Notes under the pieces: model-generated | Database searches by the model: none | Seen by the model: the letters and a program-made list of their open reading frames with translations, nothing else | Told to the model about the DNA's origin: nothing | Part shown: positions 6,401 through 30,597 of the stretch, piece after piece | Layout: every line of letters begins with the position of its first letter | Position numbering within the stretch: position 1 is the stretch's first letter | DNA from: Streptomyces halstedii | GTDB lineage: Bacteria; Actinomycetota; Actinomycetes; Streptomycetales; Streptomycetaceae | Length of the DNA: 64,000 nucleotides | Assembly: GCA_000720535.1 (NCBI GenBank) | Contig: JOAZ01000031.1 | Location: 1-64,000, forward strand | Direction: 5' to 3' | Translations under genes and position numbers: made by a program

Positions 6401-6414
6401 TGAGAGCGCTCTCA
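6401..6414. promoter_or_regulatory. LacI-type operator upstream of GH64
   Basis: TGAGAGCGCTCTCA is a perfect 14-bp palindrome with the CG-centred core typical of LacI/CebR family operators. It is identical to the site at 30559-30572 in the oligosaccharide importer gene. It lies 120 bp upstream of the GH64 start, just before a TTGACG hexamer (6425-6430). The rest of the 350-bp gap 6184-6533 shows only the repeats at 6248-6276. Confidence 0.7.
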
Positions 6415-6533
6415 GTCATAACTCTTGACGCTTGAGGCGCACATGGCGAGAGTGGTGCGCACCGCAGACGGCCCCCACCGTGTGACCTCCCCTCCGACCC
6501 CGTCTGCCGCCCCCACACCCCGGGAGTACCTCC

Positions 6534-7760
6534 GTGATTTCGCGCAGAATGTTCCTGACCGGCGCCGCCGCCTCCGCGACCGCGCTCACCTATCCGCTCT
6601 GGGGCAGCGCCCTGGCTCCGCGCGCCTCGGCCGCGGCCGCCACCTGCGAACTGGCCCTGGAGAACCGTTCGTTGCCCGGGACGGTGTACGCGTACGTCAC
6701 CGGCCACGAACAGGGCACCGACCGCTGGGTGCTGCTGCGGGCCGACGGCAGCGTGTACCACCCGGAGTCGCCGGGCGCCCCGCAGACCCCGCTGCCGGTG
6801 GACTGCGCCATCCCGCTGAACGGCGCGGGCGCCGGTCCCGTCGTGCTGACGCTGCCTCAGATGTACGGCGCGCGGGTCTACTTCGTACGCGACGACAAGC
6901 TGGACTTCTATCTGAACCCGGGCCCGTCGCTGGTCGAGCCGGCCTTCGCCACGCCCACCGACCCGAACTACGGGCGCACCTGGTCGTTCGCCGAGTTCAC
7001 CTTCAACCCGCAGCAGTTGTACGCGAACATCAGCTATGTCGACCTGGTGACCGCCCTGCCCATCGGCCTCACCCTGGAGGGCGACTCCACCCACACCGTG
7101 GCACCGCTCCCGGACGGCGCCGTGCAGCGCATCGCCGACGACCTCACGGCGCAGGCCGCCGCCGACGGGCAGCCGTGGGACAAGCTGGTCAGCCGGGGAG
7201 CGGACGGCCAGGTGCTCCGGGTCGTCTCGCCGCAGAACCTGATGGCGCCGTACTTCGACCGGCCCGACGAGATGCCGTTCCGGGACCTGTTCACGGCGCA
7301 GATCGACGAGGTCTGGGAGAAGTACCGCTCCACCGACCTGCGGATCGACCTCCAGGGCGGCCGGGGCACGCTGGCGGGCCGGGTCAGCGGCGACACGCTG
7401 ACCTTCGAGGGCGGGCACACCTTCTCCAAGCCCACCTCGAAGGACATCTTCACCTGCAACCACGGCCCCTTCACCAACAACCCGAGCGACTCGGACGACA
7501 AGAAGGCCCTGCTGGCCAGGATCGCGGCGGGCTTCAACCGGTCGATCATGCTCAGCCACCCGCAGCAGCCGAACGGCACGTCGGTGGCGGACTACTACCA
7601 GGGCGCGGTGACCAACCACTGGTCGCGGGTCGTCCACGCCAACTCCCCCATCGGGTACGCGTTCCCGTACGACGACGTGCGGCCCGACGGTGAGCCGGAC
7701 GTGTCGGGCGCGGCGAACGACGGCAACCCCCGGCGCTTCACGGTGAGCGTGGGTTCCTGA
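6534..7760 (+). CDS. Tat-exported beta-1,3-glucanase, GH64
   Basis: This 408-residue protein begins SRRMFLTGAAASATALTY, a twin-arginine signal (RRxFL) with cleavage likely after the alanine-rich stretch near residue 36. The rest matches the GH64 (laminaripentaose-producing endo-beta-1,3-glucanase) fold: LALENRS near the N-terminus, RVYFVRDDKLDFYLNPG, WSFAEFTFNPQQLYANISYVDLV around the catalytic acids, and VVHANSPIGYAFPYDDV at the C-terminus. It cleaves beta-1,3-glucan (laminarin, fungal walls) outside the cell. The GTG at 6534 has GGGA eight bases upstream. A LacI-type operator precedes it. Its last 32 bases, including the stop, are repeated three times in tandem. Confidence 0.9.
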   Translation: MISRRMFLTGAAASATALTYPLWGSALAPRASAAAATCELALENRSLPGTVYAYVTGHEQGTDRWVLLRADGSVYHPESPGAPQTPLPVDCAIPLNGAGAGPVVLTLPQMYGARVYFVRDDKLDFYLNPGPSLVEPAFATPTDPNYGRTWSFAEFTFNPQQLYANISYVDLVTALPIGLTLEGDSTHTVAPLPDGAVQRIADDLTAQAAADGQPWDKLVSRGADGQVLRVVSPQNLMAPYFDRPDEMPFRDLFTAQIDEVWEKYRSTDLRIDLQGGRGTLAGRVSGDTLTFEGGHTFSKPTSKDIFTCNHGPFTNNPSDSDDKKALLARIAAGFNRSIMLSHPQQPNGTSVADYYQGAVTNHWSRVVHANSPIGYAFPYDDVRPDGEPDVSGAANDGNPRRFTVSVGS

Positions 7761-7824
7761 CCCGGCGCTTCACGGTGAGCGTCGGCCTCTGACCCGGCGC
7801 TTCACGGTGAGCGTCGGCCTCTGA
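7729..7824. repeat. Three tandem 32-bp copies of the GH64 gene 3' end
   Basis: Units at 7729-7760, 7761-7792 and 7793-7824 each run from CCCGGCGCTTCACG to a TGA. Copies 2 and 3 are identical; copy 1, which carries the real last codons and stop, differs at a few bases. A further CCCGG starts a fourth unit. The 32-bp unit length means the frame changes from copy to copy, so only the first is translated with the gene. Confidence 0.95.
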
Positions 7825-7934
7825 CCCGGTGCCCGGACCGTCCGCCACGCGCGGTGGGCGGTCCGGGCACCGGCCGGTGCCCGTCCGGCCCACTCAGGCC
7901 TGCGGGCACCGGGGGCGTGGCGGATCGTTGGTGG

Positions 7935-9257
7935 ATGCCCCCTCTCGACGAGACGCCCGCCCCGACGTCCGGCGCACGGACCCTCCTCCACCGCCTGCGG
8001 CTGATCGACGGCAGCGGGCGGCCCCCGGTGCCGGACGCCGCCCTCCTGATCGAGGACGCGGTGATCCGCTGGGCCGGTCCCGCGAGCGCCCTCCCCTCGG
8101 ACCTCGCGCCGACGGCCCGGGTGGACCTGGGCGGCCGGACCGTGTGCCCCGGCTTCATCGACGCCCATGTGCACTTCGCCCTGCCCGGCCCCGCCGGCAA
8201 CCCGCTCCAGGGCCTCTACGAACTGCCCAGCTACCGCACTCTGAAGGTCCTGGACCGGCTGCGCGTCACCCTGGAGAACGGGGTGACCACCGCCCGGGAC
8301 CTGATGGGCCTGGACGCGGGGTTCCGGCAGGCGGTGGCGGAGCGCAGGATCCCCGGGCCCCGGCTGCTGGTGTCGGTCACCATGCTCAGCCAGCGGGCCG
8401 GTCACGCGGACTTCACCCTCGCCGGGGGCATCGACGGGCTGGCGGTCGCCGTCACCTTCCCGGAGAGCCCGCGCAGCCTGGTCGGCTCCGTGGACGACAT
8501 GCGCTCCCGGGTACGCGACCTGGTCGCGGCGGGCGCCGACTGCGTCAAGCTCGCCACCAGCGGAGGCGTCACCTCCCCGCACGACCGGCCCGAGTGGCTG
8601 GGGCTGCGGCCGGAGATGATCCGGGCGGCCGTCGAGGAGGCGCGGGCGTACGGCGGGCTGCCGGTCGCGGCGCACGCCATCGGACGGCCCGGTATCGAGG
8701 CCGCCGTCCGCTCGGGTGTCACCAGCATCGAGCACGGCTACGCCCTGGACGAGGAGTTGCGGGCGGAGATGGTGGACCGGGGCCAGTACCTCGTGCCGAC
8801 GCTGCTGGAGACGACCCAGGACCTCGACCCGGCGCGCACCTCTCCCTCGGCGTACGAGAAGGGCGTGCGCTGGCACCGGATCGCCCAGGAGTCGGTGGCC
8901 CGGTCGGCGGCCGCCGGGGTCCGGATCGCGATGGGCACCGACAGCGGGCTGGCCGTCGGCCACGGCCGGAACCTGGAGGAGCTGGGCCTGATGGTGCGGA
9001 TCGCCGGGCTGACGCCCATGGACGCGATCGTGGCCGGGACCAGCGGTGCCGCCCGGCTGTGCGGGGTCGCGGACGTCACCGGCACGCTGGAGGCGGGCAA
9101 GGCCGCCGACCTGGTGGTCACGGACGTCGATCCGCTCGCCGCCATCGCCTCGCTGGGCGAGCCCGGCCACATCCTGGCCGTGGTGAAGGAGGGCCGGATC
9201 GCCGTCGACCGTGCGGGCCTCTTCGGCGGCGGTTCCCTGCCGGCCCTCTGCCCCTGA
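7935..9257 (+). CDS. Metal-dependent amidohydrolase
   Basis: This 440-residue protein belongs to the amidohydrolase superfamily. A beta-sandwich N-terminus with RLIDGSGRPPVPDAALLIEDAVI leads to the HxH metal site in GFIDAHVHFA, a lysine region in ADCVKLATSGG, histidines in PVAAHAIG and SIEHGY, and the final Asp in AMGTDSGLAVGHGRNLEEL. GKAADLVVTDVDPL closes the barrel. The nearest groups are the imidazolonepropionase-like and Xaa-Pro dipeptidase-like amidohydrolases. The substrate is not predictable, and no signal peptide is seen. I chose ATG 7935 because the 27 upstream in-frame residues are unlike the family; no strong ribosome site supports any start. Confidence 0.85.
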   Translation: MPPLDETPAPTSGARTLLHRLRLIDGSGRPPVPDAALLIEDAVIRWAGPASALPSDLAPTARVDLGGRTVCPGFIDAHVHFALPGPAGNPLQGLYELPSYRTLKVLDRLRVTLENGVTTARDLMGLDAGFRQAVAERRIPGPRLLVSVTMLSQRAGHADFTLAGGIDGLAVAVTFPESPRSLVGSVDDMRSRVRDLVAAGADCVKLATSGGVTSPHDRPEWLGLRPEMIRAAVEEARAYGGLPVAAHAIGRPGIEAAVRSGVTSIEHGYALDEELRAEMVDRGQYLVPTLLETTQDLDPARTSPSAYEKGVRWHRIAQESVARSAAAGVRIAMGTDSGLAVGHGRNLEELGLMVRIAGLTPMDAIVAGTSGAARLCGVADVTGTLEAGKAADLVVTDVDPLAAIASLGEPGHILAVVKEGRIAVDRAGLFGGGSLPALCP

Positions 9258-9343
9258 GCCCCGGGACCGGGTACCCGGCCGGGTATCCGGAGGCCGCCGG
9301 GGCGGCGTCCGTCCCCCCGCGCGCCCGGCCCGTGGTGACATGG

Positions 9344-9377
9344 GCGTGCCCCCCGTCCCGCCGGACGGGGGGCACGC
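9344..9377. terminator. Bidirectional terminator
   Basis: A perfect 15-bp stem (9344-9358 with 9363-9377) and a 4-nt loop lie between the convergent amidohydrolase and M15-like genes. Confidence 0.8.
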
Positions 9378-9389
9378 GTACGCACGGGG

Positions 9390-9947
9390 TCAGCAGCCGC
9401 CGCAGTTGTAGTACGTCACGTCCCAGTGGTTGCCCTCGTCGGCGTAGACGTTGCCGGAGGCGGACTGGTACTGGGCCGCGCCGTCGCCGCGCAGGCCGAT
9501 GTAGGTGAACGCGCTCTTCACGTAGTTCGTCAGGCAGGTGGTCTTGCCGAAGTCGAGCTTGTAGCCGTTCCAGTGCGAGTACGTGCCGCTCGCGTGCCCG
9601 GTCTCGGTGCCGCCGGTGATGTTGAGCGCGCAGCCCGTGGCGCTCTTGAGCGTCTGGGCGCCCTGGGCGGTCGGCAGGTTGAGCTGGTCGAAGGAGGTGC
9701 AGGTCGAGACGTTGCGGTTGGAGCAGCCGCCGGACGAGGACCAGGTGACCCCGGAGGAGGTGAAGCGGGAGGTGGCCTGGGCGTGGGTCAGCTTGGTGAC
9801 GGCGTGGGCCTCGGTCGTACCGCCGATACCGAGGACGCCGACGCCGGGTGCGAACAGGACACCGAGGACGAGGGCGAGGGCGGTCAGGGCCGAGCGGAGT
9901 CTCGGACGGGTCGGCGTGAGGGGATGCGGCGCGGGGGGATGCGACAT
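9390..9947 (-). CDS. Small secreted protein with an M15-type zinc-peptidase signature
   Basis: This 185-residue protein has a signal peptide (hydrophobic ALTALALVLGVLFAPGVGVLG, cleavage near AHA). The mature part has six cysteines and two motifs resembling the DD-peptidase/hedgehog fold: SHWNGYKLD fits SxHxxGxxxD, and EGNHWDVTYY fits the ExxHxD ligand box of family M15. I infer a small extracellular zinc peptidase, possibly acting on peptidoglycan; homologues are usually annotated as hypothetical. The start at 9947 follows AGGAGG with eight-base spacing; the 13 upstream in-frame residues are untranslated. Confidence 0.6.
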   Translation of the reverse strand: MSHPPAPHPLTPTRPRLRSALTALALVLGVLFAPGVGVLGIGGTTEAHAVTKLTHAQATSRFTSSGVTWSSSGGCSNRNVSTCTSFDQLNLPTAQGAQTLKSATGCALNITGGTETGHASGTYSHWNGYKLDFGKTTCLTNYVKSAFTYIGLRGDGAAQYQSASGNVYADEGNHWDVTYYNCGGC

Positions 9948-10106
9948 GGGGGGTTCCTCCTGCTCATGACAATTCGGAACGTGCACTGCCGTGCCGTACG
10001 GGCCGGGCAGGGAGATCCTGCCCGGTTCTACGCGCGTCCGCCAGAGGGCGGGACACCTCCGTCGCGGCGATCACCGCAGAGTTCCCACAATCACCTCGTC
10101 CAGGAT

Positions 10107-10160
10107 GTTGAATGTTGAACAAAGATGGGCTAGGGTCGGTGTCGTTGAAGGTTAAACAAC
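10107..10160 (+). promoter_or_regulatory. Promoter and paired operator of the yceI-like gene
   Basis: TTGAAT (10108-10113), a 17-bp spacer and TAGGGT (10131-10136) make a good vegetative promoter. Two near-identical 16-bp elements start at 10107 and 10144 (GTTGAATGTTGAACAA, GTTGAAGGTTAAACAA; 14/16 match). The second extends to a palindromic GTTG-N9-CAAC. One covers the -35, the other lies just after the -10, a layout expected for a repressor, perhaps MarR-like. Confidence 0.65.
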
Positions 10161-10218
10161 AACTTCGACGGCCACTCGCCCGTACACACCCTCTGTACAC
10201 GTCCCCCGAGGAGGAGCC

Positions 10219-10839
10219 ATGGCTCTGTTCAACCGCAAGAACGCCGACGCCCCGACCACCAGCACCGCCGCCCTCGCGGTGGACCCGGCGCTCGCGGCCC
10301 TGACCGGTGACTACGCGATCGACCCGGCGCACAGCAGCATCGGTTTCACGGTGCGCCACGCCATGGTGACCAATGTGCGCGGCTCCTTCGGTGAGCACGA
10401 GGGCACGCTGAAGCTGGACGGCTCCGACCCGTCCCGCTCCTCGGCCTCCATCGACGTCAAGATCGCCAGCGTCGACACCGGCATCGCGGACCGTGACGGG
10501 CACCTGGTGAGCGGCGACTTCTTCGACGCGGAGAAGTTCCCCCTGATGACGTTCCGTTCGACGGCGACGGAGGCGCTCGGTGACGACACGTACCGGATCA
10601 CCGGCGACCTGACGATCAAGGACGTCACGCGGCCCCTCTCCATCGACCTGGAGTTCAACGGTTCCGCCACCGACCCGTACGGCAACCAGCGCGTCGGCTT
10701 CGAGGGCACCGCCCAGATCCTGCGCTCCGACTGGGGCCTGACCTACAACGCGGCGCTGGAGACCGGCGGCGTGCTGGTCGGCGACAAGATCAAGCTGAAC
10801 TTCGACATCTCCGCGATCAAGGCCGCCCCGCAGGCCTGA
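10219..10839 (+). CDS. YceI-family protein
   Basis: This 206-residue protein has the YceI lipocalin-like fold: YAIDPAHSSIGFTVRHAMVTNVRGSFGEHEG, SIDVKIASVDTGIADRDGHLVSGDFFDAEKFP, and DVTRPLSIDLEFNG. Family members bind polyprenoid or amphiphilic molecules. No signal peptide is seen, so this is a cytoplasmic member with a 28-residue Ala/Thr-rich N-terminal extension. GAGGAGG lies just upstream of the ATG. The gene is single, with its own promoter and paired operator-like repeats. The ligand is unknown. Confidence 0.88.
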   Translation: MALFNRKNADAPTTSTAALAVDPALAALTGDYAIDPAHSSIGFTVRHAMVTNVRGSFGEHEGTLKLDGSDPSRSSASIDVKIASVDTGIADRDGHLVSGDFFDAEKFPLMTFRSTATEALGDDTYRITGDLTIKDVTRPLSIDLEFNGSATDPYGNQRVGFEGTAQILRSDWGLTYNAALETGGVLVGDKIKLNFDISAIKAAPQA

Positions 10840-10854
10840 TCCCCCGCACGACGC

Positions 10855-10900
10855 CCGAGCGCCCGCACCGCCCCCCGGGGGGCGGGACGCGGGCGCTCGG
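10855..10900. terminator. Terminator after the yceI-like gene
   Basis: Outer 12-bp arms (10855-10866 and 10889-10900) enclose a palindromic C6/G6 core, forming a long stable hairpin 15 nt past the stop. Confidence 0.75.
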
Positions 10901-10946
10901 CGTACGGTCCGAGGGTCATTCGCCCTGGTACAGCCGCTCCCGACGC

Positions 10947-11012
10947 CTACGCGTAGTTACGGAAGCGCACGTCCCGGAAGGACAGTTCCGTGACTGGGCG
11001 CAGGCGGGCCGG
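10947..11012 (-). pseudogene. 3' remnant of a lost coding sequence
   Basis: Directly after the methyltransferase stop (11013-11015), in the same frame, 21 codons read PARLRPVTELSFRDVRFRNYA followed by TAG at 10947-10949. The segment LSFRDVRFRNYA looks like the last beta-strand of a secreted jelly-roll glycan-binding or DUF1080-like domain. No start codon or body remains. Recognition is by eye and tentative. Confidence 0.35.
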
Positions 11013-11660
11013 TCACGCCGTGCGGCGGACCTTCAGCGCGTTGTCGGTGCGGGTGGTGGGGTTGCCGTCCGGGTCGTTCTGGACGCGCTCGTGTTCGTCG
11101 CTGAGCAGCACCTCCCAGGCCCCGTCCGGCAGTTCGAGGGAGGCCAGCACCTCGTCGGGGGTGGGGAAGCGGACGCTGGGGTCCGGGTTCTGCTCCCAGT
11201 GCGGGAAGCCCGCGTGCCCGACGATCAGGAGGACACCGCCCGGGGCGACGGCCCGCGCGGCCCGGCGCAGGATCTCTTCGCGCGGCAGGTCGCCCATGGA
11301 GTGCAGGAACTGCGCCGAGACCAGGTCGTACTCCCCCTCGGGGAAGGTCGCCCCCAGGTCGTGCCACTGCCAGTCGACACGGTCGGTGACCCCGGCCTCG
11401 GCCGCGTGGACGGCCGCCCGTTCCAGCGCGACCCGGGAGATGTCCGTGGCGGTGACCCTCCAGCCCCACCGCGCGAGCCAGACGGCGTCCGCGCCCTCGC
11501 CGCAGCCGAGGTCCAGGGCGCGGCCGGGCTTCAGGCCCTCCACCTCCCGTACCAGCACGGTGTTGGGGTTGCCGCTCCAGATCCGGTCGCTCTCGCGGTA
11601 CCGGTCGTCCCACAGCTCGGCGTCGGTGGGGGCCGGGGTGGTGGCGTCGTCGTCGGTCAT
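11013..11660 (-). CDS. Class I SAM-dependent methyltransferase
   Basis: This 215-residue protein has motif I LDLGCGEGADAVWLA, a second strand VTATDIS, and ARAVAPGGVLLIVGHAGFP after the core. The N-terminal WDDRYRESDRIWSGNPN segment is typical of Methyltransf_25/TehB-like enzymes. The methyl acceptor is unknown. The ATG (11660-11658) shares its A with the TGA of the upstream flavoprotein gene, and AGGAG lies inside that gene, so translation is coupled. I rejected the 75-residue longer frame because it lies within the upstream gene. Confidence 0.87.
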   Translation of the reverse strand: MTDDDATTPAPTDAELWDDRYRESDRIWSGNPNTVLVREVEGLKPGRALDLGCGEGADAVWLARWGWRVTATDISRVALERAAVHAAEAGVTDRVDWQWHDLGATFPEGEYDLVSAQFLHSMGDLPREEILRRAARAVAPGGVLLIVGHAGFPHWEQNPDPSVRFPTPDEVLASLELPDGAWEVLLSDEHERVQNDPDGNPTTRTDNALKVRRTA

Positions 11661-12718
11661 CACATCTCCTGAAGTCCGTGTCGGCGGTCCCCGAGCACGC
11701 GCTCGGTGACCTGGCGTTCCATTGCGGCCGAGAAGGCCGGGACGGCGGGGGCGCGGCGGGCCTCGACCGCGCGCCGGGTGTCCTCGGTGACGAGGTCCAT
11801 GTTGATCGCGGACGCCGCCTTCAGACCTGCGGCCGCCGAGCCGATCACCTGTTCCATGGGGTTGGTGACGTTGCCCGCCACCCACACCCCGGGGACCTCG
11901 GTGGCCCCGGCGGGGTCGGCGGGGTCGGCGGCGATGTACGAGCCGATGGGCTGCCCGGCCACCTCCAGGGTGGTGGGGGCGAGGCCGAGGGTCTCCAGGA
12001 CCCCGGACCGCGCCGTGAAGCGGGGCTGCACCACGACCGCCTCGCGCGGGATCACCGTGCCACCGGCCAGCCGGACCCCGGTCAGCCGGTCGCCGGTCAC
12101 CTCCAGCGCGGCCACCTCGCCGTCCACCACCGCGACGGACCGGGCGGCGAGCTGCTCGTACTCCTCGTCACCGAAGTCGGCGGCGGTGTGCCGGAACAAC
12201 ACCACGTCGTCGGTCCACTGCCGCCACAGCAGCGCCTGGTGCACGGCCATCGGGCCGCCCGCCAGGATGCCGACGGGACGGGCCCTGACCTCCCAGCCGT
12301 GGCAGTACGGGCAGTGCAGCACGTCACGGCCCCAGCGCTCGGCCACACCGGGCACGGGCGGCAGCTCGTCCACGAGTCCGGTGGTGACCAGCAGCCGGCG
12401 CGCCTCCACGGCCGAGCCGTCCTCCCGCACGACGCGGAATCCGCCGTCCGGCAGCTTCTCGGCCGCCACCGCGTCGCCCTTCACCATCTCCGCCCCGTAA
12501 CCGGCGGCCTCGGCCCTGCCTGCGGCCAGCAGCTCCAGCGGCGGTACACCCTCGCGGCCCAGGTAGTTGTGCGCGTGGGACGCGGGCGCGTTGCGGGGGC
12601 TTCCCGCGTCGATGACGAGCACCGAACGCCGGGCCCGGGAGAGCGTGAGCGCCCCGCTCAGCCCGGCCGCCCCGCCGCCGATGACCACGACGTCGTACCG
12701 CTGTCTGTTCTCACTCAT
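11660..12718 (-). CDS. Thioredoxin-reductase-like FAD/NAD(P) oxidoreductase
   Basis: This 352-residue protein has the FAD dinucleotide motif VVVIGGGAAGLSGALTLSRARRSVLVID at its N-terminus, a redox-type CPYC centre (HCPYCHGWEVR) near residue 145, a second nucleotide region with GILAGGP, and VWVAGNVTNPMEQVIGSAAAGL at the end. It resembles low-molecular-weight thioredoxin reductases, but no thioredoxin gene adjoins it. The ATG at 12718 has GGAGG upstream; the GTG at 12727 lies too close to that site. It follows the ATPase gene by 15 bases and overlaps the methyltransferase gene, so the three form one operon. Confidence 0.87.
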   Translation of the reverse strand: MSENRQRYDVVVIGGGAAGLSGALTLSRARRSVLVIDAGSPRNAPASHAHNYLGREGVPPLELLAAGRAEAAGYGAEMVKGDAVAAEKLPDGGFRVVREDGSAVEARRLLVTTGLVDELPPVPGVAERWGRDVLHCPYCHGWEVRARPVGILAGGPMAVHQALLWRQWTDDVVLFRHTAADFGDEEYEQLAARSVAVVDGEVAALEVTGDRLTGVRLAGGTVIPREAVVVQPRFTARSGVLETLGLAPTTLEVAGQPIGSYIAADPADPAGATEVPGVWVAGNVTNPMEQVIGSAAAGLKAASAINMDLVTEDTRRAVEARRAPAVPAFSAAMERQVTERVLGDRRHGLQEM

Positions 12719-12733
12719 GCGAAACACCTCCGT

Positions 12734-13180
12734 CTAGGGCAGAGAGTGCGCCCGTGGCCCCGATCCGACAAACTGGCTTGCCGAAACGGCAAACTCGCAC
12801 CACACGGTCTTGCCGGGGTCCCGCTCCCCCACACCCCACGCGTCGGCCAGCGCCGCGACCAGCAGCAGCCCGCGCCCGCCCTCGGCCCCGGGGACGGGCT
12901 CCGCGTCCCGGCGGACCTGGCCGCCCCCGCTGTCGTGGACCTCGATGCGCAGGGTCTCCCCGCAGGTCAGCTCGATCTTGAAGCCCCGGCCGGGCGGCAC
13001 GCCGTGTACCAGCGCGTTGGTGGCGAGTTCGGTCACGCAGAGCAGTACGTCATCGACGGGGACCCCGCACGCCCAGTCGAGCAGCGCCGCCCGGACGAAC
13101 TGCCGTACGAGGGGGATCGACCTGCGCTCACGACGGTAGAAGGCCTCACGGAAGGGGGTGGATCGTGTTGTCTCGTTCAC
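12734..13180 (-). CDS. Anti-sigma-factor-type HATPase (RsbW-like)
   Basis: This 148-residue protein has a GHKL ATP-binding fold: N box VTELATNALVHG, D box VHDSGGG, and G box GGRGLLLVAALADAWG. Streptomyces carry dozens of such stand-alone proteins; many act as serine kinases or anti-sigma factors, usually without known targets. It is often found beside XRE/DUF397 pairs, as here, where it is divergent from one. The GTG at 13180 gives a protein of usual length; the longer frame up to 13348 crosses the divergent promoter region. First gene of a three-gene operon. Confidence 0.8.
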   Translation of the reverse strand: MNETTRSTPFREAFYRRERRSIPLVRQFVRAALLDWACGVPVDDVLLCVTELATNALVHGVPPGRGFKIELTCGETLRIEVHDSGGGQVRRDAEPVPGAEGGRGLLLVAALADAWGVGERDPGKTVWCEFAVSASQFVGSGPRAHSLP

Positions 13181-13189
13181 GGGACGACT

Positions 13190-13204
13190 GTCACAGACCG
13201 TGAC
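13190..13204. promoter_or_regulatory. Palindrome in the ATPase/XRE divergent gap
   Basis: GTCAC-AGACC-GTGAC (5-bp arms, 5-bp spacer) is followed by TAGAGT (13205-13210), a possible -10 for the XRE gene. It is a candidate autoregulatory operator. Confidence 0.4.
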
Positions 13205-13291
13205 TAGAGTGACCCAGTGCGTCAGGTCGTACGCCGCTTCTGTACGACCGCCGACGGGTCGGCCGGAGTCGCGTACGGGGAGAGGCACTTC

Positions 13292-14080
13292 ATGCACACG
13301 GCGAAGCGAAACAAGCGGGTCACCTCCTGGCATGTGATCGGCGCCCAACTGGCCACGTTCCGCAAGGCGGCCGGGCTGACACAGGCGTCACTGGCCGACC
13401 GGTTCTGTGTGGGTGAGGACACGATCGCCTCGATCGAACAGGGCCGCCGCACGCTCCAGGCGGATTTCGCGGCGGCGCTGGACGAACTGCTCGGCACCAA
13501 GGGGGTGTTGCGGTTCCCGGCGTTCGTGCAGGACTTCGTGGAGTACGAGCAGGAGGCGGTGACGCTGCTCTGGTACGAGAATCAGGTGGTGCCTGGGCTG
13601 CTTCAGACCGAGGAGTACGCCCGGTTCCTCTTTTCCTGCCTCTACCCGCCGCTGGAAGAGGAGCAGCGTGAGGAGTGGGTGGCCGCCCGCCTTGACCGGC
13701 AGAAGCTTCTCGGCCGCCGCCCGCGCCCGATACTGCACTTCCTGCTGGAGGAGAGCATCCTGCGGAGTGAAATCGGAGACGCCACCATGCGGCGGAATCA
13801 GATCCTGCACCTGCGGCGGAGTATGGAACTCCCCTTTCTGGGGCTCCAGATCATGCCGATGCGCTTGGCCAAGCACGCGGGTCTGGCGGGCCCGATGGTC
13901 CTCTTGGAGACACCTGACCACGACCATCTCGCCTATGTCGAGGGTCAGCTGACCAGCGTGCTGCACGATGACCCGGATGAGGTCTGCGTGCTCCAGCAGA
14001 AATATGGGATGCTGCGTTCGCAGGCGCTCTCTGTCGAGAGGAGCGCCCGCCTACTGGACGACCTGCTGGGAGAATCATGA
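13292..14080 (+). CDS. XRE-family regulator with DUF5753 domain
   Basis: This 262-residue protein has a helix-turn-helix at residues 15-70 (IGAQLATFRKAAGLTQASLADRFCVGEDTIASIEQGRR) and a DUF5753 C-terminal domain (VTLLWYENQVVPGLLQTEEYARFLF onward). Such proteins pair with a DUF397 protein in nearly all Streptomyces; characterised pairs influence development and antibiotic production. The ATG at 13292 is preceded by GGGGAGAGG. Its stop overlaps the next ATG (ATGA, 14077-14080), the usual coupling to DUF397. Here the DUF397 partners are abnormal. Confidence 0.9.
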   Translation: MHTAKRNKRVTSWHVIGAQLATFRKAAGLTQASLADRFCVGEDTIASIEQGRRTLQADFAAALDELLGTKGVLRFPAFVQDFVEYEQEAVTLLWYENQVVPGLLQTEEYARFLFSCLYPPLEEEQREEWVAARLDRQKLLGRRPRPILHFLLEESILRSEIGDATMRRNQILHLRRSMELPFLGLQIMPMRLAKHAGLAGPMVLLETPDHDHLAYVEGQLTSVLHDDPDEVCVLQQKYGMLRSQALSVERSARLLDDLLGES

Positions 14081-14355
14081 CGCGCACAGCACGCGGAACA
14101 TCGCTCATGTGGTTCAAGTCGAGCTACAGCAGCGACCAGGGCGGTGCCTGCCTCGAAGTCGCCTACCACTGGCACAAGTCCACCCACAGCAGCGACCAGG
14201 GCGGCAACTGCGTCGAGGTCGCCGCACACCCCACTGCCGTACACATGCCGCAGCCACCGCCCGCCGACGACCATAGGGGAAGGCATGACACGCGCAGGTC
14301 CAGGCACCGCCCTCACATGGTTCAAGTCCAGCTACAGCGGCAGCGAAGGCGGTGA
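14077..14355 (+). pseudogene. DUF397-like gene A, lacking the normal C-terminal half
   Basis: The ATG overlaps the XRE stop. The product holds two 20-residue DUF397 N-half units (WFKSSYSSDQGGACLEVAYH, then WHKSTHSSDQGGNCVEVAAH) and PTAVHM. It then departs from the family: the expected RDSK...W..F segment is absent. The frame continues without a stop through the ribosome site and start of copy B, ending out of frame at 14355 (92 residues). I read it as truncated by recombination between the repeats. A short functional protein cannot be excluded. Confidence 0.6.
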
Positions 14356-15565: not shown

Positions 15566-15566
15566 C

Positions 15567-16613: not shown

Positions 16614-16641
16614 CCGCTGCTCCTCACGCTCGGCTCACTTG

Positions 16642-21014: not shown

Positions 21015-21094
21015 CCTGTTCGTCGCTTCCCCCGCTCCCCCGGGTCCCGGCCGCGGAACGGCACCCCGGGACGGGGAGCATACGGGAGCCTAAG

Positions 21095-21113
21095 TAAGGT
21101 GAGCCTAACAGCG
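21095..21113. promoter_or_regulatory. Diverged iron box
   Basis: TAAGGTGAGCCTAAC within 21095-21113 matches the core of the 19-bp iron box on the reverse strand, with a degenerate right end. It lies between the permease operon (start 21014) and the divergent PPOX gene (start 21155) and could serve both. Confidence 0.75.
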
Positions 21114-21154
21114 CCAGGTCAGCGTGGTGCTGCCGAGCCCCCACACGGTACGGA

Positions 21155-23136: not shown

Positions 23137-23213
23137 GGAACAAACGTAACCCGAGTGGGTGACGAACGCGCCACCCACTCGGGGCCGGCCCGCGGGGGTG
23201 CCCCTGGTGGGGC

Positions 23214-24626
<1,413 letters not shown>

Positions 24627-24690
24627 GTCACTCCGTAGTTCGGTGGGTCGGGTGGGGATGTGCTCCGGCGGACCGGGCCGGATCGGGCGT

Positions 24691-24714
24691 CCGGACCGGG
24701 CGGGGCCGGTCCGG
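24691..24714 (-). terminator. Hairpin between importer operon and GH1 gene
   Basis: A perfect 9-bp stem (24691-24699 with 24706-24714) and a 6-nt loop lie between the ATPase stop (24738) and the GH1 start. It may be a partial terminator or mRNA processing point that sets GH1 dosage. Confidence 0.45.
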
Positions 24715-24737
24715 GCGCGGGGGTCGGGTCCGCCGGG

Positions 24738-25733
24738 TCAGGCGGGCGGGGCGGGCAGCCAGCAGGCCACCTCGCGCTCCTGTGCCGCGTCCGGGCGGGT
24801 GAGCACGGGGATCCGGCCCGCGCACGGCTCGAAGGCCTTGCCGCAGCGGGGGTGGAAGGCGCATCCGGTGGGCATCGCGGACAGGTGCGGCGGTGAGCCG
24901 GGGATGCCGGTGAGCTCGCGGCGGGGGCCGTGCAGCGCCGGGAAGGAGTGCAGCAGGCCCTCGCTGTAGGGGTGGCGGGGATCGCGGTAGATGTCGGCGG
25001 CACCCGCCTGCTCCACGATCCGGCCGCCGTACATGATCGCGATGCGGTCGGAGAACTCGATCAGCAGCGAGATGTCATGGGTGATGAACACGACGGAGAA
25101 GGAGAGCTGTTCCCGTAGCTCCACGAGCTTGCGCAGAATCTGACGTTGCATCACGACGTCGAGCGCGGTGGTGGGTTCGTCCATGATGACGATCTCGGGT
25201 TCCAGGGCGAGCGCCATCGCGATCATCACCCGCTGACGCATGCCGCCGGACAGCTGGTGCGGGTAGGCGGCGAGCCGGTCGGCGGAGATCCCGACGAGGT
25301 TCAGCAACTCCTTGGCCCGCTCGGTCCGTTCGGCCGCCCGCATCCCGGGGCGGTGCGCGACGAGCACATCGGTGAGCTGGCTGTGGACGGTGTGCACCGG
25401 ATTGAGCGAGTTCATCGCCCCCTGGAACACGATCGACAGCTCCTGCCAGCGGAACGCGCGCAGCTCGTCGGCGCTCAGGGCGAGGATGTCCAGGGTCTCC
25501 CCGCCCGGCCGGTGGTAGTGGACGTCGCCACCGGTGATCACTCCGGGTGGGGAGAGCAGCCGGGTGACCGCGTAGGCGAGCGTGGACTTGCCGGAGCCCG
25601 ACTCGCCCGCGAGACCGAGGACTTCGCCCCGGTGCAGGGTGAGGTCGATGTCCCTGAGGGCGCGGACGCCGCTGGTGCCGGTGCCGTAGTCGACGTTCAG
25701 GCCGCGGATGGTGAGGATCGGCTCGGCGCTCAT
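24738..25733 (-). CDS. Opp/Dpp-type ABC importer ATPase (D subunit)
   Basis: This 331-residue protein has Walker [11 protein letters not shown]-loop [16 protein letters not shown], signature LSGGMRQRVMIAMAL, Walker B IVIMDEPTTALD, and the C-terminal oligopeptide/dipeptide transporter extension with the Cys cluster FHPRCGKAFEPC, a possible iron-sulphur site. Its ATG overlaps the stop of the permease gene (ATGA). Together with the F subunit it drives import of the ligand bound by the family-5 lipoprotein at 28918-30597. Confidence 0.92.
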   Translation of the reverse strand: MSAEPILTIRGLNVDYGTGTSGVRALRDIDLTLHRGEVLGLAGESGSGKSTLAYAVTRLLSPPGVITGGDVHYHRPGGETLDILALSADELRAFRWQELSIVFQGAMNSLNPVHTVHSQLTDVLVAHRPGMRAAERTERAKELLNLVGISADRLAAYPHQLSGGMRQRVMIAMALALEPEIVIMDEPTTALDVVMQRQILRKLVELREQLSFSVVFITHDISLLIEFSDRIAIMYGGRIVEQAGAADIYRDPRHPYSEGLLHSFPALHGPRRELTGIPGSPPHLSAMPTGCAFHPRCGKAFEPCAGRIPVLTRPDAAQEREVACWLPAPPA

Positions 25734-26803
25734 ACGCTCGGCTCCTTGCTGGTCTCGCTGTTCTCGCCGGTCGTGCCGGTGTCGCGGGTCTCGCCGGGCG
25801 GCTCGGGCGTCGGCGGCGTGGAGGGGTCCGGGGTCGTGGTGGGTGCGGCGGTACGGGCCACCGGGGTGAAACCGACCCGCATCGTGACCTTCTTGGAGGA
25901 CCCCGTCGCCGTGCGCAGCCGGGGGTTCACGAACTCGTCGATGCCGAAGTTGATCAGGGACAGGGCGGTGCCCAGCAGGGCGATGCACAGGCCCGCCGGG
26001 ACGAACCACCACCAGGCGCCCTGGGCGAGGGCCTGGTTGGACTGGGCCCAGAAGAGCACGGTGCCCCAGTTCCAGTGGGAGATGTCGGCGACGCCGATGA
26101 AGGCGAGCGTGATCTCCGAGAGGATCGCGAAGATGACCGTGCCGACGAAGCCGGAGGCGATGACGGCGGTGAGGTTCGGCATGACCTCGAAGAGGATGAT
26201 CCGCCAGGTGGACTCCCCGGTGGCGCGGGCCGCCTCCACGTAGTCGCGGCGCCGGAGCGAGAGGGTCTGGGCGCGCAGCACCCGCGATCCCCAGGCCCAG
26301 GAGGTGAGCGCGATGACGGCGGCGATCAGCAGGTCCGTGGTGTCCTCGACGAAGCTCGCGATGATGATGATCAGCGGAAGTCCGGGGATGACCAGGAAGA
26401 CGTTGGAGAACAACGAGAGGACTTCGTCGGCGGCCCCGCCGAGGAATCCGGCGGTGACCCCGATGAGCACGGACAGCACGGTGGCCAGGAACCCGGCGAT
26501 GAAGCCGACCAGGAGCACGCCCCGGGTGCCGACCAGGATCTGGGAGAGCACGTCCTGACCCGTGTGGGTGGTGCCGAACCAGTGGTCGGCGGACGGCGCC
26601 TGGAGCAGTTGGTCGCTCATCGCGTCCGGGTCGTACGGGGCGATCCACGGCCCGATGACGGCGATGAGGGCGAAGAAGGCGAGGATCAGCAGACCGGTGC
26701 GGGTCTTCCCGCCGCGCAGGAAGCGGAACCTGTCCCCCCGGCCGGTCGCGGCGGGCGCGGGGACGTCGTCCAGGACGGCGGTGTCGGTGGCGGCGACGGA
26801 CAT
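25730..26803 (-). CDS. Opp/Dpp-type ABC importer permease (C subunit)
   Basis: This 357-residue protein has the OppC N-domain (FFALIAVIGPWIAPYDPDAM...HWFGTTHTGQDVLSQILVGTR), six membrane helices, and the EAA loop RRDYVEAARATGESTWRIILFEVMPN. The C-terminal 50 residues are a Pro/Thr/Glu-rich cytoplasmic tail, an unusual extension. I chose ATG 26803, ten bases after AAGGAGG; ATG 26812 overlaps the preceding stop (ATGA) but is one base from that site. Confidence 0.9.
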   Translation of the reverse strand: MSVAATDTAVLDDVPAPAATGRGDRFRFLRGGKTRTGLLILAFFALIAVIGPWIAPYDPDAMSDQLLQAPSADHWFGTTHTGQDVLSQILVGTRGVLLVGFIAGFLATVLSVLIGVTAGFLGGAADEVLSLFSNVFLVIPGLPLIIIIASFVEDTTDLLIAAVIALTSWAWGSRVLRAQTLSLRRRDYVEAARATGESTWRIILFEVMPNLTAVIASGFVGTVIFAILSEITLAFIGVADISHWNWGTVLFWAQSNQALAQGAWWWFVPAGLCIALLGTALSLINFGIDEFVNPRLRTATGSSKKVTMRVGFTPVARTAAPTTTPDPSTPPTPEPPGETRDTGTTGENSETSKEPSV

Positions 26804-26808
26804 ACCTG

Positions 26809-27789
26809 TCATGCCTCCTTGCGGGTGCGGGGGTCGAGGAAGGCGTAGGCCATGTCGGCCAGCAGGTTCGCGGCGAGCACGGAGAGCGTGATGACCAGGA
26901 AGACGCCCTGCATCAGGGGGTAGTCCTTCGCCCCGACGGCCTGGAGCAACTGGAAGCCGATACCCGGGTAGTTGAAGACCATCTCGACCAGCAGGGTGCC
27001 GCTGACGATGAATCCCAGGGAGAGGGCGAAGGCGGAGATGCTGGGCAGGACCGCGTTGCGCGCGGCGTAGGCGAACATCACCCTGCGCTCGGAGAGCCCC
27101 TTGGCCTGCGCCACCATGACGTAGTCCTCGGAGGACACGGTCACCATCATGTTGCGCATCCCGAGGATCCAGCCGGCGATGGCGCTCAGCACGATCGTCA
27201 CCCCGGGCAGCACCCCGTGGTAGAGGGCGCTGGAGATGAACGGCCAGTCGAAGGCCGGGACCAGGGAGTTGTCGTAGCCGCCCTCGAAGGGGAACAGCGG
27301 CCACTTCACCGCGAACACCGAGATGGCGATGAGGCCCAGCCAGAAGTAGGGCACCGAGGAGATGAAGGTGGTGACGGGCAGCAGCCCGTCCAGCCAGGAG
27401 CCGCGCCGCCAGCCGCTGTAGACGCCGATGCCGGTGCCGAGCAGGAAGCTGATCAGGGTGGTGATGCCGACGAGGGCCAGCGTCCACGGCAGTGCCTGGG
27501 AGATCACCTCGCCGACCGGCGTCGGGAAGAAGGTGAAGGACAGCCCGAGGTCGCCGTCGAGCAGGTGCGACCAGTAGTCGGTGTACTGCGCCCAGAGGGA
27601 CTTGTTCTCGTCGAGGCCGAACAGCGCCTTCAGGGAGGCGATGGCGCTGGTGTCGAGCTGCCCCTGGTAGCGGCTCATCAGGGCCTCGACGGGGTCGCCC
27701 GGCATCAGACGGGGGATCAGGAAGTTGATGGTGATCGCGGCCCACGCGGTGACGGCGTAGAAGGCGAGGCGCTGGAGGACGTACTTCAC
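26809..27789 (-). CDS. Opp/Dpp-type ABC importer permease (B subunit)
   Basis: This 326-residue protein begins with the first helix ([37 protein letters not shown]), typical of OppB/DppB. Further helices follow, with the EAA loop [29 protein letters not shown]. It forms the channel with the C subunit. The GTG at 27789 overlaps the previous gene's stop (GTGA), showing tight operon coupling. Confidence 0.92.
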
Positions 27790-28898
27790 TTCGCCGCCCC
27801 CTTCGCGGTCGCGCTCCCGGAGGCGGCGCCCTCGTCCGCGGTGCGCTCGTCCGTGGCGCCCTCGGCCGTGCCGTCGTACAGCCAGCAGGCCGCCCACTGG
27901 CCGTCCGCCAGGGCGAAGCGCGGCGGCAGTTCGGTGCGGCAGCGCTCCATGGCCTTCGGGCAGCGCGGGTGGAAGCGGCACCCGGCCGGCGGGTCGATCA
28001 GGGAGGGCGGTTCGCCGCTCCCGGTCTCCTCCTGGGCCGCCGCGTCCGCCACCCGGTCCGGGTCCGGCGCGGAGGCGATCAGGAGCTGGGTGTAGGGGTG
28101 CGCGGGGCGCTGGGTGACCGTCTCGCTGTCCCCGCCCTCGACGATCCGCCCGGCGTACATCACCAGGGTGGTGTCGGCGAAGTAGCGGGCGGAGGCGATG
28201 TCGTGGGTGATGTAGAGGATCGCGAGCCGCAGGCGCTCCTTCAGGTCGCGCAGCAGGTTCAGGACGCCGAGCCGGATCGACACGTCGAGCATCGAGACCG
28301 GTTCGTCGGCGAGCAGGACCTGCGGGTCGGCGCCGAGCGCGCGCGCGATCGCGACGCGCTGGCGCTGCCCGCCGGACAGCTCGTGCGGGAACTTGTCCAG
28401 GTACTGATGAGGAGGGGTCAGCTGGACGCGTTCCAGCAGGGCCGCCAGGTTCTTCTCCAGTTCCGCGTCCCCGCGCCCCGCCCGGCCGTGGATCTTCAGG
28501 GCGCGGGTCAGGTGGTAGCGCACGGTGTGCACCGGGTTGAGCGAGGCGAACGGGTCCTGGAAGATCAGCTGGACCTGCTTGACGTACGTACGGAAGGACC
28601 GGCCACGCCCGGCCTTCACCGCCGTGCCGCCCAGGTGGATCTCGCCCGCGGTGAGCGGGTAGAGCTGGGCGAGCAGCCGCGCGACGGTGGATTTGCCCGA
28701 GCCGGACTCCCCCACCAGGGCCGTGACGGTGCCGCGCCGCAGTTCCAGCGAGACGTCGTCGACGGCGTGGACGGTGCGGTGGCGCCGGGCGATCAGGTCC
28801 CGCCCGGTGCGCCGCACGGGGAAGTGCTTGGTGACGGCGCGCGCTTCCAGCACCACATCGGTCTCGGTGCGCGCGCGGGGCGTCTGTTCGGTGGTCAT
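27786..28898 (-). CDS. Opp/Dpp-type ABC importer ATPase (F subunit)
   Basis: This 370-residue protein has Walker [30 protein letters not shown], signature [15 protein letters not shown], Walker [13 protein letters not shown], and the [13 protein letters not shown]-terminal box. The last 35 residues are Ala/Glu/Gly-rich and variable. It follows the binding-protein gene by 19 bases, so it is second in the importer operon. Confidence 0.92.
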
Positions 28899-28917
28899 GG
28901 CCGGTTCTTCCCCGTAC

Positions 28918-30597
28918 TTACTTGGCGGGCTTGAGGTTCAGCACGATCTTCAGCGCGTCCGGCTGGGTGTGCTGCGGTGCGGAGTAGGGGTCTTCCTCGG
29001 TCGGCCAGCCCACCCAGTTCTTCGTGGAGTACTCGGCGCCGATGGGCGCGGCGGCGGTCGGGATGACCGGCGCCTGCTCGACCATGATCTTCTGGAGGGC
29101 GTTCATGGCCTTGGTGCGGGTGGCGTCGTCCGAGGCGTTGGCGTACTCCTTCAGCGCGGCGGTCGCCTCGGGGCTCTTGAAGCGGCCGAAGTTGCCGAGC
29201 TGGGCGCTCTTGCCGATGGGCTGGAGGATCGCGCCGTCCATGATGTTCTGGTACATGTCGTACGGCGTGGCGCCGCTGTTGGTCCAGTGCAGGGTGGCGT
29301 CGAAGTTGCCGGCGGCCACGTCGTTGCCCCAGGCCTCGGCGGTCTGGGTCTTGACCTTGGCCTCGATGCCGATCTGCTTGATGTTGTCCTTGATGATGGC
29401 GAGCCCGGTGATGTAGTCGTTCCAGCCGGCCGGGTCGGTGAAGGTCAGCGTCACCGGCTTGCCGCCCGGGTCCTTCAGGACGCCGCCGCTGAGGGTGAAC
29501 CCGGCCTCCGTGAGGATCTTCTTGGCGCCGGCCACGTCGGGCTTGGTGGTGGCGTCCTTGTACTCCGGGGCGATGAAGGCGTCACCGGCGGGCAGCGGGA
29601 TGCCGGTCGGGTTGGTGATCTCCGGGTAGAGGGTCGCCTCCGCCTGGACGTGGATGGCGTTGCGGTCGACGACCATGGCCATCGCCTTGCGCAGGGCGGG
29701 GTTGTCGAACGGCTTGCGGGCGGTGTTGAACCACAGGCCGTGGATGCCGAGTCCGGAGGGGAACCAGAGCTTGTGGTTCTTGGGGTCCTTGGCGATGTAC
29801 AGCTGCTTGTAGTCCGGCATGAAGACGAACGACCACTCGACCTTGCCGTTCGCCAGGGCCGTGGTCGCCGCGCTGTTGTCGTTGTAGGCGGTGTAGCGCA
29901 GCTCCTTGACCTTCGTCTCGCCCTTCCAGTAGGAGGGCGTGGCGGTCAGGGTGGTGGTCTGCGGGGTGAAGGTCTTCAGCTTGTACGGGCCGGAGCCGAC
30001 CGGGTTCCGGTTGGGCCAGGTCTCCGGGTTCTCGACCTTCTCCCAGATGTGCTTGGGCACGACATAGGTCGTGATGATCTTGTTCTGGTTGACGAACTGG
30101 GACTCCTTGAAGGTCAGGACGACCTTCTTGTCCTCGACCGTGATGCCGTCGTACGGGATGCCGTTGCCGTTGAGCGCCGGGTGCTTCTTGAGCAGCTCGA
30201 AGGTGAAGGCGACGTCGTCGGCGGTCAGCGGCTTGCCGTCCGCCCACGTGGCCCGGTCGTCCAGGGTGAAGGTGACCTTGCGGAAGTTGTCCTCCCACGC
30301 CCAGTCGGTGGCCAGCCACGGGTCGCCCTTGTCGGTGGGGCGGATCTGGTTGGTCATCACCAGCGGCTCGTAGATCATGAAGCGGTAGCCGAGGGTGGCG
30401 CTCGCCGAGGTCGCGAGGAACGGGTTGCTGTTGTTGGTCTGCGGCCCGTCCGGCTTCCCGAGGGTCAGTACGCCGGAGGCACCGGCGCCGCCCGACTTGT
30501 TGGCGCCGGAGTTGGCGGACGAGCAACCGGCGGCGAGGGCGACCACGACGGTGGCGGCTGAGAGCGCTCTCAGCGTGTGACGACGGCGTACGGACAT
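28918..30597 (-). CDS. ABC importer substrate-binding lipoprotein, family 5
   Basis: This 559-residue protein has a lipoprotein signal ([17 protein letters not shown], Cys near residue 25). An SBP_bac_5 fold follows: [31 protein letters not shown], then [29 protein letters not shown] and [26 protein letters not shown]. Family-5 proteins bind peptides, but also beta-gluco-oligosaccharides in several bacteria. The GH1 partner and LacI regulator favour the sugar role. ATG 30597 has GGAG upstream. A LacI-type operator (30557-30574) lies within codons 8-14. Confidence 0.9.
30557..30574. promoter_or_regulatory. LacI-type operator inside the binding-protein gene
   Basis: GCTGAGAGCGCTCTCAGC is an 18-bp perfect palindrome 24-41 bases into the coding sequence. 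Its 14-bp core is identical to the operator before the GH64 gene. Repressor bound here would block elongation or loop with a second site. The 173-bp gap before it (30598-30770) shows no second copy and no clear promoter hexamers. Confidence 0.75.

What the first reader, a model, noticed from the sequence alone, without database searches (positions are those of the whole stretch)
6401..30574. Shared operator links a GH64 glucanase to an Opp-type importer 24 kb away
TGAGAGCGCTCTCA occurs, identical and perfectly symmetrical, at 6401-6414 (before the secreted beta-1,3-glucanase) and 30559-30572 (first codons of the importer lipoprotein). I found no other copy by reading. LacI/CebR-family repressors bind such CG-centred palindromes, and a LacI gene is next to the importer, which is followed by a GH1 beta-glucosidase. 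Together these define a predicted beta-1,3-glucan (laminarin, fungal wall) regulon that uses a peptide-type (family 5) importer rather than the usual CUT1 sugar importer.
Basis: partly seen in the sequence, partly recalled or inferred. Interest (0 to 1): 0.72.

Follow-up and report, generated by a model that had tools for sequence, protein, structure and literature searches.

The report
Fungal-glucan gene switch in Streptomyces
A short mirror-image DNA word marks a set of genes that soil Streptomyces probably use to digest beta-1,3-glucan such as that of fungal walls, and in this strain it also sits inside the first codons of an importer gene; the protein that reads the word is most likely a repressor encoded elsewhere in the genome, not the one next door.

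Summary
TGAGAGCGCTCTCA occurs twice in the window and four times in the 7.74-Mb genome: before GH64, GH16 and streptogrisin-like protease genes, and inside the importer lipoprotein gene. It behaves as a genus-wide operator: 128 of 150 genomes carry it (backward control 1 of 150), and 77 of 79 distinct sites read in 30 of them lie directly before GH64, GH16, GH81, protease, CUT1, GH3, LacI or an uncharacterised secreted-protein gene.

The proposed repressor is probably wrong. The LacI beside the importer shows no clear association with the 14-mer (p=0.10), and 76 of 78 orthologues carry a different palindrome upstream. An unlinked LacI (contig C19) tracks it: 125 of 129 genomes with that LacI, 3 of 21 without (p=1e-16, not corrected for relatedness).

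The importer's locus (GH30_3-like enzyme, GH1) suggests beta-1,6- or mixed-linkage gluco-oligosaccharides, though GH30 is beside this LacI in only 35 of 77 related loci. The site in the importer gene recurs in 17 of 80 loci. I read this as two LacI regulons joined at one importer. Nothing was tested by experiment; the same 14-mer was already in print for other actinobacteria.

The parts
6401..6414 (.). Operator-like palindrome TGAGAGCGCTCTCA, 119 bp before GH64
   Evidence: same position type before GH64 in 25 of 79 sites read in other genomes
6534..7760 (+). Secreted GH64 beta-1,3-glucanase
   Evidence: Pfam PF16483, E=7e-118
2311..6183 (-). Secreted GH101-type enzyme, divergent from GH64; membership in the regulon uncertain
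   Evidence: Pfam PF12905; GH101 lies opposite GH64 at 4 of 79 sites
23214..24626 (-). GH1 beta-glucosidase, last gene of the importer string considered here
   Evidence: Pfam PF00232; closest solved chain 1gnx
24738..25724 (-). Importer ATPase with oligo_HPY domain
   Evidence: Pfam
25730..26812 (-). Importer permease, second (start chosen by reading)
   Evidence: translation; no Pfam run on this stretch alone; tblastn synteny
26809..27789 (-). Importer permease, first (start chosen by reading)
   Evidence: Pfam PF00528 on 26809-27981
27786..28898 (-). Importer ATPase with oligo_HPY domain
   Evidence: Pfam
28918..30597 (-). Importer binding lipoprotein, family 5
   Evidence: Pfam PF00496; solved relatives include chitin-oligosaccharide, mannoside and laminaribiose binders
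30559..30572 (.). The same palindrome inside codons 9-13 of the lipoprotein gene
   Evidence: 11 exact and 6 one-mismatch copies at this place in 80 related loci
30771..31745 (-). Neighbouring LacI-family repressor; probably reads another operator
   Evidence: Pfam PF00356
31803..31838 (.). Tandem GGWWCC units, predicted operator of the neighbouring LacI, between LacI and GH30
   Evidence: five units in the window, tandem units in 76 of 78 orthologues
32050..33921 (+). Secreted GH30_3-like enzyme with ricin-type lectin domain, predicted endo-beta-1,6-glucanase
   Evidence: Pfam; best solved relative 5ngk/5ngl; NCBIfam BT3312 model 267 bits, cut-off 700

Best explanation
TGAGAGCGCTCTCA is the operator of a Streptomyces beta-1,3-glucan regulon. 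A LacI-family repressor of the C19 type (in this genome at contig C19:78421-79512, unlinked to the window) is predicted to sit on it until a beta-1,3-gluco-oligosaccharide releases it, so that secreted GH64, GH16, GH55, GH81 (in species that have it) and a streptogrisin-like protease are made together. In the window's clade the same operator also lies in the first codons of a family-5 importer gene. That importer belongs to a second, neighbouring system (LacI, GH1, here a GH30_3-like enzyme, in relatives often GH3) with its own LacI and its own tandem GGWWCC operator, aimed more likely at beta-1,6- or mixed-linkage glucan. The importer would answer to both repressors, so that products of the mixed beta-1,3/1,6-glucan of fungal walls share one uptake route. 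Shown from sequence: site positions, gene families, conservation and the association across genomes. Inferred: repression, the inducers, blocking of transcription at the intragenic site, and the ligand of the binding protein.
For: Word in 128 of 150 genomes, backward control in 1. 77 of 79 distinct sites read lie directly before the gene types named. C19-type LacI: word in 125 of 129 genomes with it and 3 of 21 without. 18 of 29 C19 orthologues read have a related palindrome upstream, and the gene stands divergent from GH16 with the site between in L186, L252 and L253. Neighbouring LacI has another conserved palindrome. GH30_3 and sugar-binder relatives. Intragenic site in 17 of 80 loci, with the rare last codon TCA kept in 12 of 18 sequences compared; the same operon carries an exact, near or two-mismatch site before GH3 in 12 of the 80 loci.
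Against: In the window's own clade the C19 gene has lost the upstream site (1 weak hit in 11 read) and stands beside a BCCT transporter, so in this genome its role rests on orthology. The association is not corrected for relatedness; a control gene gives p=3e-4. Three genomes have the word without a C19 orthologue and four the reverse. GH30 is beside the neighbouring LacI in only 35 of 77 loci with room and in 14 of the 53 loci with the importer gene (my count). A GH64 enzyme of SirexAA-E is raised on xylan and xylose. 63 of the 80 loci lack the intragenic site within one mismatch. Of three one-mismatch sites in the genome only one precedes a glucanase gene.
Confidence: 0.5

Rival explanations
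1. The LacI beside the importer (30771-31745) reads TGAGAGCGCTCTCA and controls both sites.
For: It is next to one of the sites, and 34 of 36 genomes with it have the word. One relative (L069) has a one-mismatch site 134 bp upstream of this LacI gene.
Against: 94 of 114 genomes without it also have the word, p=0.10. 76 of 78 orthologues carry tandem GGWWCC palindromes instead. Its recognition helix (SKTTVSRVVN) and hinge differ from those of CebR, C3 and C19.
Confidence: 0.1
2. Another CebR-like LacI, C3:62312 or its relative C23:67247, reads the 14-mer in this genome.
For: C3 has GGAGAGCGCTCTCC just upstream, and 29 of 29 orthologues read keep the core within one mismatch. The protease site lies about 9 kb from C3. 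C23 lies downstream of two core-bearing sites. Helices are nearly the same as in C19.
Against: C3 presence is unrelated to the word across 150 genomes (42 of 49 with, 86 of 101 without, p=1.0); its own sites have different outer bases (GGA..TCC or TAT).
Confidence: 0.15
3. CebR, the cellobiose repressor, reads the word as a variant of its box, so that these are outliers of the cellulose regulon.
For: The CebR box TGGGAGCGCTCCCA differs at one base per half-site; some C19 orthologues have the mixed form TGGGAGCGCTCTCA upstream; the GH64 of SirexAA-E is raised on xylan and xylose.
Against: The genome has separate exact CebR boxes, one of them upstream of its own CebR gene, and the 14-mer is kept exactly before beta-1,3-glucan genes. 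CebR itself was not tested for co-occurrence.
Confidence: 0.07
4. The regulon is real but the copy inside the importer gene is an accident of the codons for LRALS.
For: It is absent (within one mismatch) from 63 of 80 loci; the rare AGA codon is also present in importer genes without the site.
Against: The five codons together have a chance of about 3e-5 under the codon use of 26 window genes; TCA is kept in 12 of 18 although that base was free; the same operon is linked to the word at a second place, before GH3.
Confidence: 0.25

Closest known systems
CebR/CelR regulons of Streptomyces and Thermobifida (box TGGGAGCGCTCCCA; PMC4898821 and PMC3377646, passages read)
   Same: LacI-type repressor, 14-bp CG-centred palindrome, secreted glycoside hydrolases plus importer
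   Different: Other bases at position 3 of each half-site, other gene set (beta-1,3-glucan), other LacI by co-occurrence
TGAGAGCGCTCTCA palindromes of Catenulispora acidiphila and Thermobispora bispora (PMC3377646, passages read)
   Same: Identical 14-mer; in Catenulispora before a sugar ABC operon, a LacI/GH5 pair and two GH16 genes that may be endo-1,3-beta-glucanases
   Different: That paper treats it as a CelR-like site of a putative cellobiose importer operon; no family-5 importer, no GH64, protease or GH81 and no assigned beta-1,3-glucan repressor in the passages read
Bacteroides thetaiotaomicron PUL for fungal 1,6-beta-glucan (PMC5481569, passages read)
   Same: GH30_3 plus GH3 enzymes for beta-1,6-glucan; the window GH30 matches BT3312 and keeps nine of the ten active-site or loop residues that I compared
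   Different: SusCD importer and SusR-type regulator there, Opp-type importer and LacI here; GH3 is absent from the window locus
Thermotoga maritima tmCBP (4JSD, 4JSO; PMC3850815, passages read)
   Same: Oligopeptide-type binding protein that binds laminaribiose and laminaripentaose; among the window protein's solved matches
   Different: Distant in sequence; the ligand of the window protein is unknown

Membership tests
LacI-family sugar regulon (CebR-like kind) | Palindromic operator shared by several co-functional genes, far above chance | tested here: met
LacI-family sugar regulon (CebR-like kind) | A LacI gene that co-occurs with the operator | tested here: met
   C19 type, 125 of 129 against 3 of 21
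LacI-family sugar regulon (CebR-like kind) | Operator upstream of the regulator's own gene | tested here: inconclusive
   related palindrome in 18 of 29 C19 orthologues read, but not in this genome
LacI-family sugar regulon (CebR-like kind) | Binding and release by a sugar | not testable with these tools
   needs purified protein
CebR regulon | Box TGGGAGCGCTCCCA | tested here: not met
   14-mer differs by two bases; separate CebR boxes exist in the genome
GH30 subfamily 3 (endo-beta-1,6-glucanase) | Closest to characterised GH30_3 enzymes | tested here: met
   5ngk best solved match, E=2e-66
GH30 subfamily 3 (endo-beta-1,6-glucanase) | Catalytic and subsite residues of BT3312 | tested here: met
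   by reading the alignment: two Glu, Asn237, Asp131, three Trp, two Cys kept; Asn244 not
GH30 subfamily 3 (endo-beta-1,6-glucanase) | NCBIfam BT3312 equivalog cut-off | tested here: not met
   267 bits, cut-off 700
Opp-type (family 5) importer | SBP_bac_5 protein, permeases, two ATPases with oligo_HPY | tested here: met
   Pfam; second permease by reading and tblastn only
Opp-type (family 5) importer | Peptide as ligand | not testable with these tools
   gene context and solved relatives point to sugar

The most novel reading that the evidence does not exclude
Two LacI regulons, one for beta-1,3-glucan and one for beta-1,6-glucan, are joined at a single family-5 importer by an operator written into its signal-peptide codons, so that uptake answers to both repressors; in the window's clade this route may stand in for the CUT1 beta-1,3-glucan importer, which 7 of the 8 sampled genomes with the intragenic site lack (difference from the others not significant, p=0.40).
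Probability: 0.27. Interest if true: 0.65.

Novelty: new member of a known kind. Interest (0 to 1): 0.5.

Why it matters
If true, most of the 150 genus genomes sampled share one switch for attacking beta-1,3-glucan, a main glucan of fungal walls, and the switch includes a protease, like the glucanase-plus-protease mixtures known to lyse yeast (recalled). It names a testable repressor, gives a 14-bp tag for finding further wall-lytic genes (including a secreted protein type without a match in the libraries tried), and corrects the natural guess that the neighbouring LacI is in charge. It also offers a family-5 importer with a sugar ligand to test.

Tried and rejected
Neighbouring LacI as reader: rejected on co-occurrence and on its own conserved palindrome. 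C3-type LacI as genus-wide reader: attractive because of its upstream site but without association. CebR: has its own boxes; its co-occurrence was not tested.

CUT1 replaced by the family-5 importer: among 36 genomes with the neighbouring LacI, 1 of 8 with the intragenic site and 9 of 28 without it have the CUT1 importer, p=0.40; kept only inside the novel case.

Genome search for the GGTTCC-type palindrome: 215 forward matches at up to 2 mismatches against 179 for the control, so no regulon can be read from it. Promoter and terminator scan of 30560-32060: none found. Conservation of the core among the 18 intragenic sequences is circular, since loci were chosen by having it; only the last base was free. 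Two scripts to collect LacI helices failed or missed many and were replaced; one search missed most loci and was replaced. One search was cut by runs of N; I used its visible part only for a first look, and for the count. Regions L102, L103 and L128-L133 were fetched and gave nothing that I use; L254-L258 turned out to hold CebR-like LacI genes without the word.

No description of this Streptomyces regulon was found in the open-access library with the searches (listings, and passages of PMC3377646, PMC12772271 and PMC4898821). Most subscription journals are missing there, so this does not show that none exists.

Four fetched site loci (L200-L203) had been left out and one (L252) repeated the site of L176; the counts are now 77 of 79 sites in 30 genomes. 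The GH30 gene turned out to be beside the LacI in only 35 of 77 loci, so the beta-1,6 part is now stated more weakly and the probability of the novel case was lowered from 0.30 to 0.27.
Full report
OBSERVATION. TGAGAGCGCTCTCA is at 6401-6414 and 30559-30572 and nowhere else exactly in the window; 100 shuffles give none. The genome that holds the window (7.74 Mb, 105 contigs) has four exact copies and none of the backward control. The 80 best relatives of the neighbouring LacI protein come from records named Streptomyces, one of them '[Kitasatospora] papulosa', so I take the genome to be Streptomyces; no tool names it.

WHERE THE SITES LIE. One is 119 bp before GH64 (6534-7760). One is 38 bp before a gene whose product matches solved endo-1,3-beta-glucanases of the GH16 type. 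One is 78 bp before a gene with an alpha-lytic-protease prodomain, which I read as a streptogrisin-like protease; Pfam found only the prodomain. The fourth is inside codons 9-13 of the importer lipoprotein gene. Three sites have one mismatch: one precedes a gene that matches all 561 residues of the solved protein 4PEW (the name SacteLam55A and its GH55 family are recalled), the other two (C6, C20) do not precede a glucanase gene.

GENUS-WIDE TEST. In 150 genomes of the genus the exact word is found in 128, the backward control in 1. I read 79 distinct sites in 30 of these genomes, namely all places that one search listed for 26 genomes plus one site in each of four more; one repeated locus is left out. 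77 of the 79 have a known type of gene beginning between -8 and +391 bp: GH64 25, GH16 21, S1-type protease 15, GH81 8, an uncharacterised secreted protein 5, GH101 4, GH3 of the importer operon 3, a CUT1 binding protein 3, a LacI gene 3 (genes may share a site); 2 stay unassigned. These types were assigned by tblastn to reference proteins; GH81 and the second GH64 type rest on Pfam hits of reference members.

WHICH PROTEIN READS IT. The genome has 29 LacI-type helices; all 29 genes were examined, 28 and the window's own before. Of the 28, one has the core GAGAGCGCTCTC just upstream, C3:62312 with GGAGAGCGCTCTCC; CebR at C9 has TGGGAGCGCTCCCA. I compared presence of three LacI types with presence of the exact word in the same 150 genomes. 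Neighbouring LacI (E up to 1e-80): word in 34 of 36 with it, 94 of 114 without, p=0.10. C3 type (E up to about 2e-110): 42 of 49 with, 86 of 101 without, p=1.0. C19 type (best E up to 1e-110): 125 of 129 with, 3 of 21 without, p=1e-16. I set the C19 cut after seeing a gap in the best values per genome (7e-114 to 4e-89); at the search's own cut of 1e-80 the numbers are 128 of 140 with and 0 of 10 without, p=6e-10. Dropping three incomplete genomes gives p=2e-17. A control gene (any homologue of the CUT1 binding protein) gives p=3e-4, which shows how much shared descent alone can give. No tree-based correction was made.

Further support for the C19 type: 18 of 29 orthologues read (30 fetched, one helix not found) have a related palindrome such as TGGGAGCGCTCTCA or TGGAAGCGCTCTCA upstream, one of the 18 weak; and in G073, G036 and G048 the gene is divergent from GH16 with the site between. 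Against it: in the window's clade only 1 of 11 read has even a weak site, and the C19 gene of this genome stands beside a BCCT transporter. In this genome the assignment therefore rests on orthology.

THE NEIGHBOURING LacI HAS ANOTHER OPERATOR. Of 80 related loci 78 have enough upstream sequence; 76 carry tandem GGWWCC units in 6-bp register within 250 bp upstream of the LacI gene, against 0.06% of composition shuffles. The window has five such units between the LacI and GH30 genes.

WHAT THE IMPORTER LOCUS IS FOR. The divergent GH30 enzyme is closest to 5ngk/5ngl, the GH30_3 endo-1,6-beta-glucanase BT3312 (PMC5481569, passages read). By reading the alignment, both catalytic glutamates, Asn237, Asp131, three tryptophans and both loop cysteines named there are kept; Asn244 is not. 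NCBIfam's BT3312 model is its best hit but far below cut-off. Among the 80 loci, 53 have the importer gene (my count). The GH30 catalytic domain lies divergent from the LacI gene in 35 of 77 loci with room, and in 14 of the 53 with the importer (my count). Of 66 loci with room on both sides, 43 have the whole importer, 45 GH1 and 33 GH3. Some loci have GH30, LacI and GH3 without the importer; GH30_3 plus GH3 is the enzyme pair of the Bacteroides fungal 1,6-beta-glucan locus. So beta-1,6-glucan is a fair but not a firm guess for this LacI. The binding protein's solved relatives include a chitin-oligosaccharide binder, a mannoside binder and T. maritima tmCBP; tmCBP binds laminaribiose and laminaripentaose (PMC3850815, passages). 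Nickel and peptide binders are also among its weaker matches. A sugar ligand is likelier than a peptide; a beta-1,6 or mixed beta-1,3/1,6 oligosaccharide is my first guess.

THE INTRAGENIC SITE. Among the 80 loci, 11 have the exact word and 6 a one-mismatch version at the start of the importer gene. In 150 genomes a pattern for this position finds it at the importer in 8; a ninth hit, in G029, lies elsewhere. The site uses the rare codons AGA (1.2%) and TCA (3.4%), and the five codons together have a chance of about 3e-5 under the codon use of 26 window genes. In 18 sequences compared TCA is kept in 12 although that base was free in the selection (p=7e-13, no correction for relatedness). But AGA also occurs in importer genes without the site. 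Related loci carry the word before GH3 of the same operon: 2 exact, 1 with one and 9 with two mismatches among the 80, and 3 of the 79 sites. In four of the 80 loci GH64 with its site (three exact, one with a mismatch) lies 5 to 11 kb from the LacI gene. This repeated link, at different positions, is the best argument that it is functional.

A SISTER REGULON. GGAGAGCGCTCTCC or a close form precedes the C3 LacI, two DUF1996 genes (C3, C23) and a second GH55-like gene (C11; family judged by eye). All 29 C3 orthologues read (30 fetched) keep the core within one mismatch. Cross-talk is possible.

PRIOR WORK. Anderson et al. 2012 (PMC3377646, passages) print the same 14-mer twice upstream of a sugar ABC operon in Catenulispora, and upstream of a LacI/GH5 pair and two GH16 genes that may be endo-1,3-beta-glucanases, and also in Thermobispora. 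Book et al. 2016 (PMC4898821, passages) describe the CebR box. In SirexAA-E a GH64 enzyme, SACTE_4755, is secreted on xylan and xylose (PMC12772271, passages); I did not check that it is the orthologue of the window's GH64. This counts against a switch that answers to beta-1,3-glucan alone.

VERDICT. The operator and its gene set are real by conservation. New member of a known kind, with an unusual join.

Noticed in passing
L187:1525-2952 + (also L188, L190, L232, L246): Secreted protein of about 460-476 residues directly after the 14-mer at 5 of 79 sites; the one tested (L187) has no Pfam, NCBIfam or PDB sequence match. A possible new wall-lytic enzyme type.
   Followed up: partly
L099 (C3), L096 (C23), L098 (C11) of the window's genome: Variant palindrome GGAGAGCGCTCTC(C/T) or AGAGAGCGCTCTCT before the C3 LacI gene, two DUF1996 genes and a second GH55-like gene with a CBM32-type domain: a sister regulon.
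   Followed up: partly
window 7731-7833: Three near-identical copies in tandem of the last bases of GH64 with its stop codon.
   Followed up: no
L210, L224, L233: CUT1 binding-protein gene and GH81 gene divergent around the 14-mer, with a C19-type LacI gene about 3 kb away: the likely standard beta-1,3-glucan locus, absent from the window's genome, whose best homologue (46%) lies in the CebR region.
   Followed up: partly
window 2311-6183: GH101-type secreted enzyme divergent from GH64, kept so at 4 of 79 sites; GH101 acts on mucin-type O-glycans (recalled), odd company for a glucanase.
   Followed up: no
L069, 134 bp upstream of its LacI gene: One relative carries a one-mismatch form of the 14-mer upstream of the neighbouring-type LacI gene itself.
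   Followed up: no
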